Shown here: positions 46,120 through 54,874 of the stretch, piece by piece
How positions within the stretch are numbered: position 1 is the first letter of the stretch
How the letters are laid out: each line of letters starts with the position of its first letter
NCBI GenBank assembly: GCA_902512305.1
Contig: CABXIU010000004.1
Coordinates: forward strand, 62,001-126,000
Source: an uncultured Gammaproteobacteria bacterium
GTDB lineage: Bacteria; Pseudomonadota; Gammaproteobacteria; PS1; Pseudothioglobaceae
Reading direction: 5' to 3'
DNA: 64,000 nt
The notes under the pieces: model-generated
Database searches by the model: none
Seen by the model: the letters and a program-made list of their open reading frames with translations, nothing else
Told to the model about the DNA's origin: nothing
Program-made: the position numbers and the translations under genes

Positions 46120-46209
46120 AGCGATAATTTTATATTCTTTCTAATCAACCATTAAATTTTTCTTTATTTTTTCTTGAGTTTGGTTCATAATGCGTTTTGG
46201 AGGCTTCAT

Positions 46210-47085
46210 ATGCAAGACAATAAAGGTTTGATTGACCAGTTTCATAGGGATGGCTATCTCTTTTTTGAAAATGCCATTACTAGCGAACAACTGGCATCAC
46301 TTAACTCTGAGCTGGCCAAGTGGGTTGATGAGAGCAAAAAACATAAAGAGCCTTTTGGCAGAATCATGGACGGCAGACCTCGATTTGATCTCGAGCCAAC
46401 AACACACTCCCCTGAAACACCTGCGGTTAGAAGGATCACTTCTCCGGCAGAGATTTCTGATGTATGCCTTGATGTTGTAAAAGATAATAACGCACTGGAT
46501 CTGGTTGTTGAGATCTTTGGTCCAAATATCACTCACTTGGGCAACAAAATAAATCTCAAGTTGCCTGGCGCTGGAACTGAAGTAAAGTTCCACCAAGACT
46601 TTCCTTTTGAACCACATTCAAATGAGGATATTATGACTGTCCTGTATTTTTTGGATGACGTGACTTTAGACAATGGACCATTGGAGGTTGTCCCTGGCAC
46701 ACATAACGGACCGCTCCACTCTCATTGGCAAAACGGTGTTTTCACAGGGGCAGTTGATGAAAAGGTTATGGAATCAAACAAGGATAAGGCTGTAAGCTGC
46801 ACTGGAAAGGCGGGCTCGGCTTGTCTTATGCATTCAAAATTGTTGCATGGTTCAGCATCAAACCGCTCTTCAATGCCGAGATCTCTATTCATAATAACCT
46901 ATAAAGCTGAGGATGCAGTTGCTCTATCACCAAACCACCTCCCTAGCGATCTCGTTGGAATGGTTGTCAGGGGGAAAGAAACTGGAACGGTTAGGTGCAC
47001 AAGTTATAGTGTTGAGTTGCCAGAGTACCCTAAAGAGGTTTCATTTTTTGGGCAGCAATCCAAAAGTAAAAATACGGCAATGTAG
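46210..47085 (+). CDS. Phytanoyl-CoA dioxygenase (PhyH)-family Fe(II)/2-oxoglutarate oxygenase
   Basis: 291 residues from the ATG preceded by a strong TTTTGGAGG site 6 nt upstream; an in-frame TTG at 46174 has no such site. The double-stranded beta helix shows the metal triad HQD (KFHQDFPFEP) and the distal His (LLHGSASN), with a nearby Arg as a 2-oxoglutarate anchor. Substrate unknown. It sits 30 nt before the TmpA-like gene. Since PhnY, the 2-aminoethylphosphonate hydroxylase, is also a PhyH-family enzyme, a phosphonate or related osmolyte substrate is a reasonable guess but not shown. Confidence 0.85.
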   Translation: MQDNKGLIDQFHRDGYLFFENAITSEQLASLNSELAKWVDESKKHKEPFGRIMDGRPRFDLEPTTHSPETPAVRRITSPAEISDVCLDVVKDNNALDLVVEIFGPNITHLGNKINLKLPGAGTEVKFHQDFPFEPHSNEDIMTVLYFLDDVTLDNGPLEVVPGTHNGPLHSHWQNGVFTGAVDEKVMESNKDKAVSCTGKAGSACLMHSKLLHGSASNRSSMPRSLFIITYKAEDAVALSPNHLPSDLVGMVVRGKETGTVRCTSYSVELPEYPKEVSFFGQQSKSKNTAM

Positions 47086-47167
47086 AGTTATTTTGAACTG
47101 TTAAGGCTTTATTTATGAAGGGGATATAATCGATTTAATCAATAAAATTTCTATAGTTGATGACGAG

Positions 47168-48262
47168 TTGGTTATCGACTGGAAGGACGGAAAAAAAAGT
47201 TTACTCTATAGCTACTGGCTAAGAGACCACTGCCAAATGCCTGAATCAAGAAACTTAGATAATGGGCAAAGACTATTCAGCGTTAAAGATTTACCCTCTA
47301 GTATATCTATTGAAAAAGCTTACAAGGATGACCAGGGAAATGTCTGTGTGCTGTTTCAACCTGAAAATCACTTGTCAGTCTTTTCACAAGAATGGCTTCG
47401 TTTTAATTGCTATGATTTAAACAACCACTTCGAAGATAGGAGCGAAAAGATAAAAAAGCTCTGGCAAAAAAATAGTTTTGAGAATGGATTGCCACTAATT
47501 GACTATGATTCAATGACCAAGGATGATACAAAATTAAAAGCGCTTTGTTCCTTGAGGGATATAGGTTTCTTTGTTTTAACAGGTGTCCCGACAGTTAAAG
47601 GTCAAGTATTAAAAGTGACCAGTGAAATGGGATACACTCGGGAGACAAACTACGGGGCTTTGTTTGAAGTAAGAACTGAAGTTAAGCCAAATAATCTTGC
47701 TTATACTAATCTTGGTCTTGGTTCTCATACCGACAATCCTTATCGAGATCCTGTTCCAACTGTCCAGTTGTTGCATTGCCTTGAAAGCTCAACTAAAGGT
47801 GGAGATTCAATCTTGGTCGATGGATTTAAAGCTGCCTCAATTCTTCGAGAAGAAAGTAGTGAAAACTTCCCAATATTAACAAACAATTGGATTAATTTTC
47901 GTTTCTCTGATGATAATACTGACCTTCGTTCAAGGGTCCCGATGATTGAGTTAAATGATAAAAATGAAATTATTAAAGTTAGATATAACAATCGTTCAAT
48001 CGATACGATTAATTTACCAAAAGATAAAATGAGGGCTTTTTATAAAGCCTATCGTCACTGGAGTGAGATCATTGAGAGAGACGAATTAAAAGTTCAATTT
48101 AAGCTCTCAGAGGGCGATTTAATGCTCTTTGATAATACTCGAGTTATGCATGCAAGAACTGAATTTTCTCAAACTGGAAAGCGTCATCTGCAGGGCGCCT
48201 ATATGGACCTTGATGGACTCTATAGTTTACTCAACACTTTAGAAAACAAAAATAATGACTAA
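47168..48262 (+). CDS. tmpA: TmpA-like Fe(II)/2OG oxygenase (gamma-butyrobetaine dioxygenase family)
   Basis: 364 residues from TTG. The N-terminal domain is GBBH-like (LLYSYWLRDHC), the C-terminal TauD/CAS domain has the HxD pair in GSHTDNPYRDP, the distal His in NTRVMHAR and the Arg after GKRHLQGAY. The HD oxygenase gene overlaps by 8 nt. That pairing is the hallmark of TmpA, which hydroxylates 2-(trimethylammonio)ethylphosphonate at C1, not of carnitine synthesis. The same frame stays open and family-like back to 47105 without ATG, GTG or TTG; an ATG at 47115 with AAGG 8 nt upstream is one base out of frame across a G4 run (47120-47123). The true start is therefore uncertain. Confidence 0.78.
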   Translation: MVIDWKDGKKSLLYSYWLRDHCQMPESRNLDNGQRLFSVKDLPSSISIEKAYKDDQGNVCVLFQPENHLSVFSQEWLRFNCYDLNNHFEDRSEKIKKLWQKNSFENGLPLIDYDSMTKDDTKLKALCSLRDIGFFVLTGVPTVKGQVLKVTSEMGYTRETNYGALFEVRTEVKPNNLAYTNLGLGSHTDNPYRDPVPTVQLLHCLESSTKGGDSILVDGFKAASILREESSENFPILTNNWINFRFSDDNTDLRSRVPMIELNDKNEIIKVRYNNRSIDTINLPKDKMRAFYKAYRHWSEIIERDELKVQFKLSEGDLMLFDNTRVMHARTEFSQTGKRHLQGAYMDLDGLYSLLNTLENKNND

Positions 48263-48818
48263 GATCACTTCGAAAAATATTGTAGATCTTATTGAAGACA
48301 TTTTTCTTCGAAGAGGGGCTGAATCATACTTAGGTGAGCAGGTCACGATGGCACAGCATATGCTTCAAACTGCTCAATGCGCTGAAGAAGCGGGTGCAGA
48401 TAACAGTCAAATAGTGGCAGCCCTTCTTCATGATATAGGTCATTATAAAAATGAAATTCCTGAAACATCATTGGCAAAGGGTGTTAACAATTATCATGAA
48501 GAGGCTGGCGCTAATTTTCTTGAGGAATATTTCTCAGCTTCTGTCGTAGAACCGATTCGTCAGCATGTTGCAGCAAAACGTTATTTATGTGCAGTTAAAT
48601 CAGATTATTTTGAGCGTCTTTCTGCTGCATCGGTTCACACTCTCAACCTTCAGGGCGGACCCATGAATGACAAAGAAATAGAAGAATTTGAAAAAAATGA
48701 TTATTTAGATCACTGCATAAATTTAAGATATTGGGATGAAGAAGGGAAAGACCCAGAAAAAAACCACCCGCCATTTTCTTACTATCGCCCATTAATTGAC
48801 TCTCTAGTAAAAGGCTAA
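48255..48818 (+). CDS. tmpB: TmpB/PhnZ-type HD-domain mixed-valent diiron oxygenase
   Basis: 187 residues, close to PhnZ (about 190). The set of metal and gating residues known for PhnZ is present at nearly the same positions: Tyr25, Glu28, His35, His59-Asp60 (LLHDIGH), His81, His104 and Asp161 (LRYWDEEG). Such enzymes use O2 to cleave the C-P bond of a 1-hydroxyphosphonate. TmpB turns 1-hydroxy-2-(trimethylammonio)ethylphosphonate into glycine betaine and phosphate; PhnZ makes glycine from the amino analogue. The TmpA-like partner and betaine genes nearby favour TmpB. Substrate choice remains inference. Confidence 0.82.
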   Translation: MTKITSKNIVDLIEDIFLRRGAESYLGEQVTMAQHMLQTAQCAEEAGADNSQIVAALLHDIGHYKNEIPETSLAKGVNNYHEEAGANFLEEYFSASVVEPIRQHVAAKRYLCAVKSDYFERLSAASVHTLNLQGGPMNDKEIEEFEKNDYLDHCINLRYWDEEGKDPEKNHPPFSYYRPLIDSLVKG

Positions 48819-48860
48819 TTTTTCAATTTAGTTATCAATTAGACTCATCTAAAAGAGTAA

Positions 48861-48969
48861 GATTAAGTCCATATACAACAAACCTTGAGGTATATATAAT
48901 ATGCCAGAGTGTTATATAGTGCTTAATGTAAGCAATATTTAATAATTATAGAAAATAATGGACTTAATC
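48861..48969 (+). promoter_or_regulatory. Possible structured leader upstream of the AroQ-like gene
   Basis: A perfect 12-bp inverted repeat GATTAAGTCCAT (48861-48872) / ATGGACTTAATC (48958-48969) closes an 85-nt interior. Inside are two more hairpins: ATATAC/GTATAT around 48871-48896 and GCTTA-ATG-TAAGC at 48921-48933. The 3' arm covers the only GGA near the ATG at 48975, so pairing could block the ribosome. It may be a cis-regulatory RNA. A TATAAT at 48895-48900 could instead start transcription inside it, which would break the model. Confidence 0.4.
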
Positions 48970-48974
48970 AATAA

Positions 48975-49442
48975 ATGAGTAATGGTAAATTATTAATAAT
49001 TAATGGACCTGGATTATCCGATCTAAGTGAGCTTAATGAGACAGTTCATGATGGTCTATCTTTAGCTGATGTAAAGCAAAAATGCATCAAGACTTGTGAA
49101 GGATTTGGTCTGGAGGTCGATTTTCGCCAAAATGATGATGAATCTGAGTTATTGAGTGGTTTAATTAATGATATTAATAATTTTGATGCTTTCATAATTA
49201 ATCCAGCTGGATTTGCAGAATCATCATTTATAGATTATGAAGCTTTTAGCACAGCAATAAATAAAATTACTAATCAAAGTAAGCCAGTTATTGAAGTTCG
49301 TATAGAAAATATCTTTAAGCCGGATATTAGTAGGCCTTTGCGGGGAGTTGAAAGTGGCGGCGTAGGCTTTGTCAGCGGGCTTGGTCAGTATGGTTATGTA
49401 CTGGCTATTCAGTCAATTAACAAAAAACTAAGTAATAAGTAA
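48975..49442 (+). CDS. Degenerate AroQ-like (type II dehydroquinase) paralogue
   Basis: 155 residues with the flavodoxin-like type II dehydroquinase fold. The N-terminal LLIINGPGLSDL and the C-terminal GVGFVSGLGQYGYVLAIQ line up with the AroQ protein encoded directly after it. The catalytic loop with its Arg and Tyr is absent. The His after the INAAAY motif is Glu82 here, and the second catalytic His is Arg109. It is therefore unlikely to dehydrate dehydroquinate; it may be a non-catalytic subunit or have a new function. Its stop TAA is followed by the aroQ ATG with no gap. Confidence 0.72.
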   Translation: MSNGKLLIINGPGLSDLSELNETVHDGLSLADVKQKCIKTCEGFGLEVDFRQNDDESELLSGLINDINNFDAFIINPAGFAESSFIDYEAFSTAINKITNQSKPVIEVRIENIFKPDISRPLRGVESGGVGFVSGLGQYGYVLAIQSINKKLSNK

Positions 49443-49886
49443 ATGAATATATACGTAATAAATGGTCCAAACATAAACCTTTTGGGTGCTCGTGAGCCTG
49501 AAATTTATGGCAAGGAAACTATAGAAGGTATTGCTAAAGATTGCCAAGAAAAGGCATCAAAAGATGGCCATGTTGTTAAATTTATGCAGTCTAATTATGA
49601 AGGTGAGATTGTTGAATGGATTCAAGATGCAATCATTCAAAAAGTAGATGCAATTGTTATAAATGCTGCTGCCTATACCCACACATCAATTGCGATTCAT
49701 GATGCATTAAAGTCATATTCAGGATATAAAGTCGAGTTACACATTTCAAATCCACATTTACGTGAGTCATTTCGCCATGTTTCTTTTATTTCTTCGGCGG
49801 TTGATTCTGTTGTAGCTGGCCTTGGGGCAGATGGCTACAGCCATGTTATAGAGTTATTGTCTGAATTGCCTATCAAAGTAGACTAG
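49443..49886 (+). CDS. aroQ: 3-dehydroquinate dehydratase, type II
   Basis: 147 residues. All known catalytic positions can be seen: Arg17 and Tyr22 in LGAREPEIYG, Asn74, His80 in INAAAYTHTS, Asp87, His100 in ELHISNPH and Arg111. It converts 3-dehydroquinate to 3-dehydroshikimate in the shikimate pathway, or in reverse for quinate breakdown. It is translated right after its degenerate paralogue. Its stop shares CTAG with the stop of the convergent methyltransferase gene. No other shikimate gene is near. Confidence 0.93.
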   Translation: MNIYVINGPNINLLGAREPEIYGKETIEGIAKDCQEKASKDGHVVKFMQSNYEGEIVEWIQDAIIQKVDAIVINAAAYTHTSIAIHDALKSYSGYKVELHISNPHLRESFRHVSFISSAVDSVVAGLGADGYSHVIELLSELPIKVD

Positions 49887-50782
49887 CTAAATAGTTTTTT
49901 GTTCATTAAGTCAATATGTTCAGTATGAACTCCACAGCAACCACCAATGAAGCTTACACCTTGATATTTCCATTTTGCAGAATATTCACAGTATTCTTGA
50001 GCTGAAATGACATTATTAAAAGTCCATTCTCCATTCACTGATTTACCTGAATGAGCATAAACCCCAGTCAAACCCTTCCATTGACTTTGAAGAATTTCTA
50101 AACATCGGTCAACGAACTCAACCTCGGTATGCATAATATTAATTACATCTGGATTATAAGATTTAATTACATCTATAACATTTTCAAGCTTTTCCCCATC
50201 TCGCAAACACATCTGATTTGATGCGTTAGGTTCACACGTTAGTCCAATCCAAAGAGGGAGTCCTGAAGATTGAGCAGCTTCAATAGTTGTAACCATTTGT
50301 TCGATGTCAATCATCATTTCGAGCATAATAAAGTCTGCTCCGGCATCTCTCATGATTTGCGCTTGTTCAGTCACAGATAGCTTTAGCTCTTCTAGTGAGG
50401 GTTTATTACCGGTCCATGTCCAATATGAGATTCCTCCAGCAACAAGAACTTTATCATTTTTTAACTCCTCTTTTGCCTGAATGACAAGCTCAACACCCCT
50501 CCTATTCAAAGCTTCAAAGTTATTTTCTTGTTTTGCGTCAGTGAGTGCATGTTTGGTGGTAGCAAAAGTATTACTGATGACAATTTCGGCTCCCAAATCA
50601 ATGTAGTCTTTATGAATTTGCTTGACAATTTCTGGATGGCTTAATGCGCCTCCTCCATTCCAAGCATTATCGAGTTGTGGAACGCCTCTTCGTTCTACTT
50701 CGGTTCCAGTAGCGCCATCTATTAGGATACATTCTCCATTCTGAGCTCTTTTTATTAATTTACTATATTGATTCATAGCCAT
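49883..50782 (-). CDS. Homocysteine S-methyltransferase-family protein (betaine-homocysteine type candidate)
   Basis: 299 residues, a TIM barrel. N-terminal LIDGATGTEVERRG and EIVISNTFATT match the family, and the GGCCGVHTEHI motif gives Cys282-Cys283 as zinc ligands. The usual first zinc cysteine (in a GVNC-type strand end) appears replaced in VINIMHTEVEF. The family moves a methyl from betaine or S-methylmethionine to homocysteine. The gene follows the dimethylglycine-dehydrogenase-like gene by 14 nt on the same strand, which suggests glycine betaine as donor. That substrate is inference. Confidence 0.75.
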   Translation of the reverse strand: MAMNQYSKLIKRAQNGECILIDGATGTEVERRGVPQLDNAWNGGGALSHPEIVKQIHKDYIDLGAEIVISNTFATTKHALTDAKQENNFEALNRRGVELVIQAKEELKNDKVLVAGGISYWTWTGNKPSLEELKLSVTEQAQIMRDAGADFIMLEMMIDIEQMVTTIEAAQSSGLPLWIGLTCEPNASNQMCLRDGEKLENVIDVIKSYNPDVINIMHTEVEFVDRCLEILQSQWKGLTGVYAHSGKSVNGEWTFNNVISAQEYCEYSAKWKYQGVSFIGGCCGVHTEHIDLMNKKLFS

Positions 50783-50796
50783 CTTTGACTCATACG

Positions 50797-53232
50797 TTAT
50801 ACTAATATTCTACTATAGCTTTCATCGTAAGGGCTAAATGGGATAACTTCTGCAGAGATCAATTCCCCTAATAAATCCAAATTCAGCTGAGTTCCTATTT
50901 TTGATTTTTCAGGATTTACAAATGCATATGCAAGGTTTAAATTAACTCTGTGTCCCCATTCGCCAGATGTTATTGTGCCAATTACACTTCCATCCTCCAT
51001 AAGCGAGGCTCCGCCGTATGCAGGGGCATGTTTGCAAGCTACTTTTAGACAGACAAGTTTTTGATTTGGGCTTTTTTTAATTCGATTTTTTAATGCCTCT
51101 TTACCAATAAAGTTATCTTTCTTTAGATTCACAAAGCGGTCAAGGCCGGTTTCAAAAGGATCAAACTCAGTTATTAAATCTGACTTCCATCCCAAAAACC
51201 CTTTTTCCATTCTCATGGACTCTACAGCTCTAGACCCAAAGAGCTTCATTCCAAACTCTTCTCCTGCTTCAGTGAGTTCTAAGTATGCAGCATATAGAGA
51301 TTCATTGGGTACATGCACTTCATAAGCGAGCTCACCAGAGAAACTAACTGACATTATGGTGGCCGGAGAAAAGCCAATGAAACATTCTCTTACGCTGAGC
51401 CATGGAAATGACTCCTTGCTCCAATCTTCGCGACTACATTTGGAGAGGACTTCTCTCGCTTTTGGTCCAGCTAAAAGAAGTATTGTTTGGTCATTTGTTA
51501 GGCTTTTGATTGCAACATCTTCATCATCTTTTAAGTTCTGATTTAGCCAATCCATATCGTGAAACTCAGAGGCGGCAGCGGAACCATACCACATTCTTTT
51601 TGGGCCACGGTCTGAAGCTGGAATATTGGATATAGTGGCTTCACTTTTTATCATTCCGAAGTCATTCAGAAGGTAACCTAAGCCAACTCGACCTGACTTC
51701 TGGGTAATGTTGCCACAAAACATTCGGTCAACAAAACTGTTGGCATCTGAGCCAGTAATTTCAAATCGATTAAAGCCATTCACTTCAGTAAGCCCTACAT
51801 TATTTTGGACATTTTTTACTTCGTTTGCCACAACATCAAATGCCTCATCAAAGTGAAACGAGAGAGAAGGGTGGAAGTCTTTTGAGGGCTTAATATATTC
51901 AACACGCTCCCATCCATTAATCACAGTAAATTCAGCATTTTTATTTGCCATGACTGGTGTTAGAGGAGTAGTTTTGGCAGGGCGAGCAGCCGGACGATGT
52001 TCGTGTGGAAAGTGAAAACGAAATTCGTTTTGATAATCTTCAATGGCTTTTAGAGAGGTCATTTCTACATTAGCGTGTGCAGTAAATCTTCGCGGGTCAA
52101 GACACCATGTGTCATAGCATGCTTCACCATGAACAATCTGTTGAGCGAGTAACCAGCCATGTCCGCCACCTTCACCAAGGCCTGCTCTTAATCCAATGAT
52201 GCAAAAGGCATTTTCTTTTCCAGGTATTTTCCCAACCAGTGGCACCCCATCGATTGTGTAAGTAATTGGGCCATTAATTATGCTTCTTATTCCAGCATTC
52301 ATTAAGACTGGCATTCGAGCAAATGCACCATCTAAAACATCGGTAACTCTTTCTAAATCATCTGGACAAAGGGCATTTACAAAGTTTGGATCAATTCCAT
52401 CCATTCCCCATGGTTTGCAATTTTGCTCGTAAAATCCAAGAAGAAGTCCATCCTTATCTTGTCGACAATAATAATCAGATATTGGGCATCTTAAAAGAGG
52501 CATTCGGTGGCCTGCATCGATAATTTCTTGAATATCTTCTGTCAGAAAATACTGATGTTCCATTGAAGCTACAGGGTGGTGAACGCCCATCATTGCACCC
52601 ACTTCATTGACCCTGTATCCGCAGGCGTTAACGATAACATCGCAATCAATATCACCACTTTCTGTAGTTACTTTCCAGGTGCCATCTTGGTATTGTTCTA
52701 GAGCGATTACAGGAGTGTTTGTGTAGACCTCAGCTCCAGCTTGCCTAGCCCTTCGACATAAGGAGTGACACAACTGATATGGGTCTATATCTCCATCAAG
52801 CGGATCCCATAATCCACCAATTAAATTATCAGTTGAAATTAATGGATGCCGTCTTTGACATTCCTTAGCATCAATGACTTCAAAATCAACATCCATGCCT
52901 CGAGCCATTGAAGCGAAATGGCGGTATCCCTGTATTTGCTCTTTTGTATTTGCAAGCCTGATTCCCCCATCACCATGATTGTAGTTGATTGGATGATTCG
53001 GGTCATCAGCCAATTCCTTGTATAGATTAATGGAGTGTGTTTTTAAACCAACCATTGTTTGGTTCATTCCAAAATTCGTTACCTGGGCAGCAGAGTGCCA
53101 AGTAGTACCGCTGGTTAGATCATTACGCTCAAGAAGTACAACGTCAGACCAGCCCTCTTGAGTCAGATGATACAAGGTTGAGCAGCCTGCAATTCCTCCA
53201 CCAATAACTACAACCTTTGTTCTTGTTTTCAT
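50797..53232 (-). CDS. Dimethylglycine/sarcosine dehydrogenase-like flavoprotein
   Basis: 811 residues in the DMGDH layout. Residues 1-370 are a DAO-type FAD domain with GGGIAGCSTLYHL and SGTTWHSA; His46 is at the position where DMGDH attaches FAD covalently. An FAO_M linker follows, then from about residue 430 an aminomethyltransferase (GCV_T) domain for tetrahydrofolate, with a GCV_T C-terminal part (residues about 700-811). Such enzymes oxidatively demethylate dimethylglycine or sarcosine and pass the one-carbon unit to folate. It lies upstream of the methyltransferase gene in one operon and likely handles its product. Confidence 0.88.
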   Translation of the reverse strand: MKTRTKVVVIGGGIAGCSTLYHLTQEGWSDVVLLERNDLTSGTTWHSAAQVTNFGMNQTMVGLKTHSINLYKELADDPNHPINYNHGDGGIRLANTKEQIQGYRHFASMARGMDVDFEVIDAKECQRRHPLISTDNLIGGLWDPLDGDIDPYQLCHSLCRRARQAGAEVYTNTPVIALEQYQDGTWKVTTESGDIDCDVIVNACGYRVNEVGAMMGVHHPVASMEHQYFLTEDIQEIIDAGHRMPLLRCPISDYYCRQDKDGLLLGFYEQNCKPWGMDGIDPNFVNALCPDDLERVTDVLDGAFARMPVLMNAGIRSIINGPITYTIDGVPLVGKIPGKENAFCIIGLRAGLGEGGGHGWLLAQQIVHGEACYDTWCLDPRRFTAHANVEMTSLKAIEDYQNEFRFHFPHEHRPAARPAKTTPLTPVMANKNAEFTVINGWERVEYIKPSKDFHPSLSFHFDEAFDVVANEVKNVQNNVGLTEVNGFNRFEITGSDANSFVDRMFCGNITQKSGRVGLGYLLNDFGMIKSEATISNIPASDRGPKRMWYGSAAASEFHDMDWLNQNLKDDEDVAIKSLTNDQTILLLAGPKAREVLSKCSREDWSKESFPWLSVRECFIGFSPATIMSVSFSGELAYEVHVPNESLYAAYLELTEAGEEFGMKLFGSRAVESMRMEKGFLGWKSDLITEFDPFETGLDRFVNLKKDNFIGKEALKNRIKKSPNQKLVCLKVACKHAPAYGGASLMEDGSVIGTITSGEWGHRVNLNLAYAFVNPEKSKIGTQLNLDLLGELISAEVIPFSPYDESYSRILV

Positions 53233-53240
53233 TTGACTTC

Positions 53241-53816
53241 CTAATAGTAAAACTCTATGGTTGAGACTGAAACATCAGAAACATAATCTTTACCGTAGGC
53301 AACAATCCCAAAGCTTCTAATATTTTTAGCATCCAAAGTGGAATTGGTTGACCACTTACGTTCGAATTTATTGAAAGGTAGATCGATAATTTGCCACTCT
53401 GAATCAGCTTTAAATGTAGCCGAATAATAGTCAGATGGAGACCAATTCTCATTAGTTCGGATATGAATATAGTAAGTCTCACCATTGCCTCTTACATTGA
53501 GACGAACGCCTTGGAGATTATTGCCATTCTTTTCAGAGTTTGCAAATGATACTCCAGCACGCAACTGAATGAAACCACCATTGTTTGAAGTACTAACATT
53601 CCCAGTGAGTCTTGCATAATACATTTCTCCTTCTTTCTCAAGATCAACCTGGCCATCGGAAACTCCACCCATTACTCGATCACTAACATATTGCCAGTAT
53701 TTACCACTATCAGCATTAAATGGAAAGCTAAGATTTTCTTCAGTCGCAAAAATATTTGAACTAAGTGTTAAAGTAATGAATAGAGCCAGAAATGAGACTA
53801 GCAGTCGTTTTTTCAT
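53241..53816 (-). CDS. Secreted CIA30-family protein
   Basis: 191 residues. The signal peptide is KKRLLVSFLALFITLTLSS with cleavage near IFA-TEE. The remainder is a CIA30/NDUFAF1-like beta-sandwich: WQYVSDRVMGGVSDGQ, NVSTSNNGGFIQLR, GVRLNVRGNGETYYIHIRT and FGIVAYGKD. The eukaryotic relatives assist complex I assembly, whereas bacterial forms with signal peptides have no settled role. The 8-nt gap to the DMGDH-like gene downstream suggests one transcript, so it may be the first gene of the betaine operon. Confidence 0.82.
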   Translation of the reverse strand: MKKRLLVSFLALFITLTLSSNIFATEENLSFPFNADSGKYWQYVSDRVMGGVSDGQVDLEKEGEMYYARLTGNVSTSNNGGFIQLRAGVSFANSEKNGNNLQGVRLNVRGNGETYYIHIRTNENWSPSDYYSATFKADSEWQIIDLPFNKFERKWSTNSTLDAKNIRSFGIVAYGKDYVSDVSVSTIEFYY

Positions 53817-53927: not shown

Positions 53928-54395
53928 CTACATCTGTGATTGAGTATAGTTTTCAATACCAATTTTTTTAATTAATCCGAGTTGTATTTCGAGCCAATAT
54001 GCATGATCTTCTTCTGTGTCTTTAAGTTGATCTCTTAAGATAGCTCTTGTAATAAAATCTTGTTCTTCTTCACAAAGCTTTATCGCTTCTTTGAGATCCT
54101 TAACGACTTTGTATTCAAGTGCTAAATCATTTTCTAAGCATGATACAACATCTGAACCTATGTTTATTTCGTCTTGAATAGATAAATCAGGGGTTACTTC
54201 TAGAAATAGTAAGCGCTTAATAATTTGATCTGCATGACCTGTTTCTTCTTCCATTTCATGATTAAGTCTTTCATGTAGTTTCGTTAAGCCCCAATCATCA
54301 TAAATTCTAGAGTGAGCAAAATATTGATCGCGCGCAGCTAATTCGCCTTTAAGTAAGTATTGAAGTTTCTTGATAACTTTAGCACTTCCCTTCAT
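53928..54395 (-). CDS. bfr: Bacterioferritin, ferroxidase-type subunit
   Basis: 155 residues, the standard four-helix ferritin-like length. Ferroxidase ligands are all present: Glu18, Glu51, His54, Glu94, Glu128 and His131 (EEDH). The heme-binding Met52 of E. coli Bfr is Thr here, so this subunit should oxidise iron but not bind heme by itself. The other bacterioferritin lies 14 nt upstream and has the opposite pattern. Together they would form mixed 24-mers storing iron. Likely Fur controlled through the shared upstream region. Confidence 0.9.
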
Positions 54396-54409
54396 AAATT
54401 ACCTCCATA

Positions 54410-54874
54410 TTAAATAATTGATTGATGATAGTTTTCCGATCCAAGTTTGATATCAAGTTCGATTTGTGTTTCAAAGAAGTCAATACGTTCTTCACAATCC
54501 TCAAGACATTCTTTTAGATGGTCACGAGTTATATAGTCTTTTTCAGTTTCAGATTCTGCAATTCCATTCTGAAGAACACTACGAAAAGCTTCTTCCATTG
54601 ATAGGTTGCTTTGAAGAATTTCAACAACATTTTCTCCAATCCTGAGATTTCCCAAGTCTTGAAGATTAGGCAAGCCTTCTAAAAACAATATTCTCTGAAT
54701 TAAAGAATCTGCATCCTTCATTGTCTGAATAGAATACTTATAATTTTTTTCTCCAAGATCATTGAACCCCCAATCATTAAGCATTCTGGCATGCAAAAAG
54801 TATTGATTAATCATGGTCAGTGAAGCTTTTAGAACTTGATTAAGAGTTTTATTGATAGAGTTTTTAATTTTCAT
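54410..54874 (-). CDS. Bacterioferritin, heme-binding-type subunit
   Basis: 154 residues. It keeps Met52 (IQTMKDADS), the axial heme ligand, and the ILFLEGLPNLQDL motif. The ferroxidase ligands are mostly lost: Glu18 is Ser, Glu51 is Thr, His54 is Asp, and the last His is Ile131. So it is probably a structural and heme-carrying subunit that works with the neighbouring subunit. First gene of the pair, divergent from bfd with a Fur box between. Confidence 0.88.
   Translation of the reverse strand: MKIKNSINKTLNQVLKASLTMINQYFLHARMLNDWGFNDLGEKNYKYSIQTMKDADSLIQRILFLEGLPNLQDLGNLRIGENVVEILQSNLSMEEAFRSVLQNGIAESETEKDYITRDHLKECLEDCEERIDFFETQIELDIKLGSENYHQSII

What the first reader, a model, noticed from the sequence alone, without database searches (positions are those of the whole stretch)
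46210..53232. Candidate methylphosphonate-betaine utilisation cluster: TmpA/TmpB-like oxygenases next to betaine and dimethylglycine genes
Seen: a GBBH-like 2OG oxygenase gene overlaps by 8 nt a PhnZ/TmpB-type HD oxygenase with its full ligand set. Established: TmpA/TmpB (described from Leisingera caerulea) turn 2-(trimethylammonio)ethylphosphonate into glycine betaine and phosphate. On the opposite strand, 1-4 kb away, are a DMGDH-like flavoprotein and a homocysteine methyltransferase-family protein that could remove the betaine methyls. Inference: one locus supplies phosphate, methionine methyl groups, C1-folate and sarcosine/glycine from a methylated phosphonate. Coupling of C-P cleavage with betaine catabolism in one place would be new to me.
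Basis: partly seen in the sequence, partly recalled or inferred. Interest (0 to 1): 0.85.

Follow-up and report, generated by a model that had tools for sequence, protein, structure and literature searches.

The report
TmpAB phosphonate locus with betaine-gene cassette
This stretch of a small marine bacterium's genome (SUP05 clade) carries the two enzymes predicted to turn a methylated phosphonate into phosphate and glycine betaine, next to an optional gene pair that may strip methyl groups off the betaine; the phosphonate enzymes are well supported, the coupling is plausible but only inferred.

Summary
A PhyH dioxygenase, a TmpA homologue and a TmpB homologue (8-nt overlap) lie on + at 46.2-48.8 kb. 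A homocysteine methyltransferase-family gene (HMT) and a DMGDH-family flavoprotein lie on - at 49.9-53.2 kb. The genus is Pseudothioglobus (SUP05/arctic96BD-19). TmpA passes the NCBIfam TmpA cut-off and keeps the three phosphonate-binding residues, including the Arg that human GBBH lacks. TmpB has all diiron ligands and the YxxE loop and falls in a supported TmpB clade that excludes PhnZ, although it scores under the NCBIfam cut-off. tmpB occurs in 24 of 29 genomes of the genus, including cultured strain PS1; three species have TmpA and TmpB fused.

The betaine half is weaker. HMT/DMGDH is an optional cassette: at 21 resolved tmp loci both are present in 6, one in 4, neither in 11. HMT is not the genus's BHMT, which is encoded elsewhere. 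Several paralogues are closer to mammalian DMGDH than this flavoprotein. In favour of coupling, its orthologues sit beside an MttB-like gene whose best PDB match is glycine betaine methyltransferase, and once beside tmpAB and carnitine genes. Verdict: a new member of the TmpAB pathway with a plausible, facultative link to betaine demethylation.

The parts
46210..47085 (+). PhyH-family Fe(II)/2OG dioxygenase, first gene of the putative tmp operon (a TTG start at 46174 is also possible); substrate unknown
   Evidence: Pfam PhyH 100 bits; weak to EctD and methylphosphonate hydroxylase models; conserved 5' of tmpA in most of the genus but absent beside the fused loci
47168..48262 (+). TmpA homologue: predicted 2-(trimethylammonio)ethylphosphonate (TMAEP) hydroxylase. 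Start codon uncertain: homologues extend about 18 aa further upstream in frame
   Evidence: NF049936 TmpA 424 bits (cut-off 400), TIGR02409 GBBH 488 (cut-off 415); PDB 6npb TmpA E 3e-94 against GBBH 1e-56; N176, N275, R276 match TmpA N187, N287, R288
48255..48818 (+). TmpB homologue: predicted HD-domain mixed-valent diiron oxygenase cleaving the C-P bond to glycine betaine and phosphate
   Evidence: best model NF049941 TmpB 260 bits (cut-off 300, not reached); PDB 6npa E 4e-55 against PhnZ 5e-34; ligands and YxxE invariant; inside the TmpB clade 99/92
48975..49442 (+). Degenerate type II dehydroquinase-like protein, conserved in the locus, probably not catalytic
   Evidence: Pfam DHquinase_II 68 bits; lacks the Tyr- and His-containing motifs of the intact neighbour
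49443..49886 (+). Intact AroQ, 3-dehydroquinate dehydratase (housekeeping)
   Evidence: NF003806 195 bits, cut-off 171
49883..50782 (-). HMT: homocysteine S-methyltransferase-family protein, methyl donor unknown; candidate betaine demethylase
   Evidence: Pfam S-methyl_trans 170 bits; below every NCBIfam equivalog cut-off, BHMT model only 80 of 338; no homologue at 1e-40 in 397 other Pseudomonadota genomes
50797..53232 (-). DMGDH-family flavoprotein with folate-binding GcvT domains; candidate dimethylglycine dehydrogenase, 14 nt upstream of HMT
   Evidence: DAO+FAO_M+GCV_T+GCV_T_C; PDB DMGDH 517 bits over the full length; 72-75% identical orthologues in 11 genomes of another class
53241..53816 (-). 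CIA30-domain protein marking the outer edge of the optional HMT/DMGDH cassette
   Evidence: Pfam CIA30 100 bits; directly adjoins AroQ where the cassette is missing (L033, L040, L045, L049-L051)

Best explanation
The tmp operon encodes the TmpA/TmpB pathway: TmpA (Fe/2OG) hydroxylates TMAEP at C1, and TmpB (diiron HD oxygenase) cleaves the C-P bond to give glycine betaine and phosphate (inferred by homology; about 0.85). Some species also carry a convergent HMT-DMGDH cassette at the same site. Its most likely role is to demethylate the betaine: HMT moves one methyl to homocysteine, giving dimethylglycine and methionine, and the flavoprotein oxidises dimethylglycine (and possibly sarcosine) with transfer of the C1 unit to tetrahydrofolate (about 0.45). 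Where the cassette is missing, the betaine can go to the BHMT encoded elsewhere or serve as an osmolyte. The coupling is thus facultative and not a shared operon.
For: TmpA and TmpB models and PDB matches; diagnostic residues, with Arg at the R288 position in all 70 TmpA-type sequences next to or like TmpA and Ala in human GBBH; TmpB tree; single-ORF TmpA-TmpB fusions in three species of the genus and in Streptomyces/Kitasatospora. For coupling: cassette at the same site in divergent species; the DMGDH orthologue directly followed by an MttB-like gene in G001 and G019, beside it in 5 of 11 genomes of another class, and that gene's best PDB match is glycine betaine methyltransferase; Hyphomicrobiales locus L063 holds MttB-like, the DMGDH orthologue (60%), TmpA, TmpB, BKACE and carnitine 3-dehydrogenase within 15 kb; betaine-type ABC binding proteins in the genome.
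Against: TmpA also passes the GBBH equivalog cut-off and TmpB misses its own. Neither cassette gene adjoins tmpAB at 11 of 21 resolved loci. In complete PS1 the DMGDH orthologue is about 410 kb away and there is no HMT orthologue. HMT is not BHMT; a true BHMT (459 bits, cut-off 338) is elsewhere. Several paralogues match mammalian DMGDH better than the window protein. No activity data.
Confidence: 0.6

Rival explanations
1. tmpAB is a stand-alone TMAEP pathway; HMT and the flavoprotein are unrelated neighbours that happen to share an insertion-prone site (for example acting on other N- or S-methyl compounds).
For: Separate convergent transcripts; cassette missing at 11 of 21 loci; many DMGDH paralogues in the genome; in 44 tmpB loci of other taxa the commonest neighbour besides tmpA is a LysR regulator, and a full-length DMGDH-family gene lies near only four.
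Against: The same orthologue is beside tmpAB in eight genomes of the genus and, independently, in a Hyphomicrobiales genome with carnitine/betaine genes; MttB-like partner elsewhere.
Confidence: 0.4
2. The 2OG oxygenase is a gamma-butyrobetaine hydroxylase of carnitine metabolism and the HD protein only a neighbour.
For: Passes TIGR02409 (488, cut-off 415).
Against: PDB TmpA 319 bits against GBBH 195; Arg at the phosphonate site where GBBH has Ala; overlapping and elsewhere fused partner TmpB.
Confidence: 0.06
3. The flavoprotein acts on N-methylated aminophosphonates rather than on dimethylglycine, as FAD enzymes PbfC/PbfD do.
For: Pbf enzymes oxidise methylated AEP (PMC10590968); a DMGDH paralogue shares an operon-like cluster with tmpB and AEP genes in Sneathiella (the AEP genes were recognised by eye from sequence, not by a family search).
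Against: The paper reports that no FAD enzyme is known to act on quaternary amines such as TMAEP; the Sneathiella protein is a 30% paralogue; the orthologue's MttB-like partner points to betaine.
Confidence: 0.1

Closest known systems
TmpA/TmpB of Leisingera caerulea (Rajakovich 2019; summarised in PMC10574752)
   Same: Family models, active-site residues, paired genes, phylogeny of TmpB
   Different: About 45% and 51% identity; preceded by PhyH; optional HMT-DMGDH cassette; fused in some relatives
PhnY*/PhnZ (AEP pathway) and GmPhnY/GmPhnZ (methylphosphonate)
   Same: 2OG hydroxylase plus HD diiron oxygenase logic
   Different: The hydroxylase partner is GBBH/TauD-type; the HD protein falls outside PhnZ in the tree
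PhoF (fungal PhnY-PhnZ fusion; PMC10574752)
   Same: Hydroxylase and C-P oxygenase in one chain, as in the fused TmpA-TmpB of relatives
   Different: The fusion here is of TmpA- and TmpB-type domains; the window itself has separate genes
BHMT plus DMGDH betaine demethylation
   Same: A homocysteine methyltransferase-family protein beside a DMGDH-family flavoprotein
   Different: HMT falls far below the BHMT model and the genus has a separate BHMT

Membership tests
TmpA | Score above the NCBIfam TmpA equivalog cut-off | tested here: met
   424.1 bits, cut-off 400
TmpA | Phosphonate-binding N187, N287, R288 | tested here: met
   N176, N275, R276
TmpA | Adjacent TmpB partner | tested here: met
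   8-nt overlap; conserved and sometimes fused
TmpA | Hydroxylates TMAEP | not testable with these tools
   needs enzyme assay
TmpB | Six diiron ligands and the YxxE loop | tested here: met
   invariant with 6npa and PhnZ
TmpB | Groups with TmpB and not PhnZ | tested here: met
   clade 99/92 with L. caerulea TmpB; PhnZ outside, on a long branch
TmpB | Score above the NCBIfam TmpB equivalog cut-off (an annotation threshold, not a defining trait) | tested here: not met
   260.5 bits, cut-off 300; still the best model
GBBH | Score above the NCBIfam GBBH cut-off | tested here: met
   488 bits, cut-off 415
GBBH | GBBH-type substrate site without the phosphonate Arg | tested here: not met
   Arg at that position; human GBBH has Ala
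BHMT | Score above the NCBIfam BHMT cut-off | tested here: not met
   80 bits, cut-off 338; another protein of the genus scores 459
DMGDH | Domain order DAO-FAO_M-GCV_T-GCV_T_C with similarity over the full length | tested here: met
DMGDH | Closest to mammalian DMGDH among the paralogues | tested here: not met
   493 bits; paralogues of the genus reach 525-565
DMGDH | Oxidises dimethylglycine | not testable with these tools
   needs enzyme assay

The most novel reading that the evidence does not exclude
The locus is a facultative module that takes TMAEP all the way to phosphate, methionine methyl, C1-folate and sarcosine. In it a genus-restricted homocysteine methyltransferase is a second, non-BHMT type of betaine demethylase, standing in for the MttB-like enzyme that partners the same flavoprotein elsewhere; in sister species TmpA and TmpB have fused into one C-P cleaving enzyme.
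Probability: 0.3. Interest if true: 0.65.

Novelty: new member of a known kind. Interest (0 to 1): 0.42.

Why it matters
Pseudothioglobus (SUP05/arctic96BD-19) is widespread in the ocean. If right, most of its species can draw phosphate and glycine betaine from a methylated phosphonate, and in some species the carbon and methyl groups are routed onward. The cultured strain Ca. Thioglobus singularis PS1 carries tmpAB, so the prediction can be tested directly. The fused TmpA-TmpB enzymes would be a natural test of whether the hydroxylated intermediate is channelled.

Tried and rejected
GBBH/carnitine reading: rejected on residues and partner. PhnY/PhnZ reading: the HD protein is outside PhnZ. 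HMT as BHMT: rejected by model scores. A PHO box near the operon: none; 1 match in the window against 6 expected by chance. PhnD-type binding protein in this genome: none. Structure prediction of the 433-aa protein that follows tmpB in some relatives failed (pLDDT 38), and a profile search of PDB gave nothing. The original TmpA/TmpB paper is not held, so its own neighbourhood analysis could not be read. Only three papers in the held library mention TmpA, TmpB and phosphonate.

Full report
Observation. All named genes are present at the stated places. The tmp half is PhyH-tmpA-tmpB-aroQ2-aroQ on +, and HMT and the DMGDH-family gene follow tail to tail on -. The genome is a 1.48-Mb assembly, 89.6% complete. 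Another genome of the same genus is a single contig of 1,714,148 bp, the published length of Ca. Thioglobus singularis PS1 (PMC4616169), so the genus is Pseudothioglobus of the SUP05/arctic96BD-19 clade (inference from that match; taxonomy).

TmpA and TmpB. The 2OG oxygenase passes both the TmpA and the GBBH NCBIfam cut-offs but matches the solved TmpA far better than GBBH. PMC9296572 reports that TmpA holds the phosphonate with N187, N287 and R288, whereas human GBBH uses two Asn. The window protein has all three; Arg at that position is present in all 70 TmpA-type proteins examined, while human GBBH has Ala. N287 itself varies in a few other TmpA-type proteins. The HD protein has H35, H59, D60, H81, H104, D161 and Y25xxE28, the motif described for PhnZ and TmpB (PMC8177086). 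It misses the NCBIfam TmpB cut-off but that is its best model. In a 100-sequence tree the genus's proteins, with one from a sister genus, form one clade (99/98) inside a supported clade (99/92) with L. caerulea TmpB, mostly from loci with an adjacent tmpA; PhnZ lies outside (bootstrap not fully settled, PhnZ branch long).

Distribution and fusions. tmpB was found in 24 of 29 genomes of the genus, one other genome of the family, and otherwise sparsely in the class. In G019, G001 and G026 TmpA and TmpB are one ORF of 569-587 aa at a different genomic site. Fused ORFs also occur in Streptomyces pseudovenezuelae and a Kitasatospora. These fusions support that the two proteins act together. The known precedent is PhoF, a fungal PhnY-PhnZ fusion (PMC10574752).

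The betaine half. At 21 resolved tmp loci of the group, HMT and DMGDH are both present in 6 (G000, G003, G013, G021, G027, G007), DMGDH alone in 2 (G028, G002), HMT in 2 (G020; G017 with only a short DMGDH remnant) and neither in 11. Without the cassette, CIA30 often directly adjoins AroQ, so this is an insertion/deletion at one site. In PS1 the DMGDH orthologue is elsewhere. HMT is genus-restricted in the genomes searched and not BHMT; the genus's BHMT model match is in another locus beside a glutamine-synthetase-like gene. The flavoprotein belongs to a family with many copies per genome, several closer to mammalian DMGDH, so its substrate cannot be read from similarity alone.

Evidence that still favours coupling. 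The same flavoprotein orthologue is directly followed by an MttB-like gene in G001 and G019, and in 5 of 11 genomes of an unnamed family of another class it lies beside an MttB-like gene about 60% identical. That MttB-like protein matches solved glycine betaine methyltransferase best (203 bits against 163 for trimethylamine methyltransferase). In Hyphomicrobiales isolate OFTM307 (L063) the orthologue (60%) lies with the MttB-like gene, tmpA, tmpB, a BKACE and a carnitine 3-dehydrogenase. A first-demethylase plus DMGDH-family arrangement is common in the genus: in G000, G005 and G028 two MttB genes each lie within 100 nt of a DMGDH-family gene. By analogy HMT may replace MttB here; this is inference.

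Conclusion. The pair is a credible TmpAB (about 0.85). The integrated betaine route is plausible and facultative (about 0.45), not shown. I file the pair as new members of the TmpAB pathway.

Noticed in passing
L053:8813-10564, L044:9664-11373, L047:9729-11492; L095:8492-10558, L108:8942-10537: TmpA and TmpB fused into one ORF in three Pseudothioglobus species and, separately, in Streptomyces/Kitasatospora.
   Followed up: partly
L038:2594-3892, L036:6353-7651, L042:10312-11610, L053:10592-11893: A 432-433-aa protein directly follows tmpB in six genomes of two genera; only a weak match to methylcobalamin:CoM methyltransferase (9e-5); fold unknown.
   Followed up: partly
G000:C15:10323-14317, G000:C6:30101-34000, G005:C1:92780-96781 and 193220-197115: Recurrent adjacent pairs of a non-pyrrolysine MttB-like methyltransferase and a DMGDH-family flavoprotein in a marine genus with about 5 MttB and more than 10 DMGDH-family genes per genome.
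   Followed up: partly
window 48975-49442: A degenerate type II dehydroquinase conserved beside the intact AroQ across the genus; it has lost the catalytic-motif residues yet is retained.
   Followed up: partly
window 47100-47168: tmpA has no ATG: coding similarity to homologues continues about 18 aa upstream of the TTG at 47168, so the start codon is unusual or the annotated start is wrong.
   Followed up: no
L067:7513-10577, L070:7497-10576: In Sneathiella a DMGDH-family gene sits directly before tmpB without tmpA, next to genes that look like AEP degradation.
   Followed up: no
window 53928-54874: Two divergent bacterioferritin-like genes in tandem.
   Followed up: no
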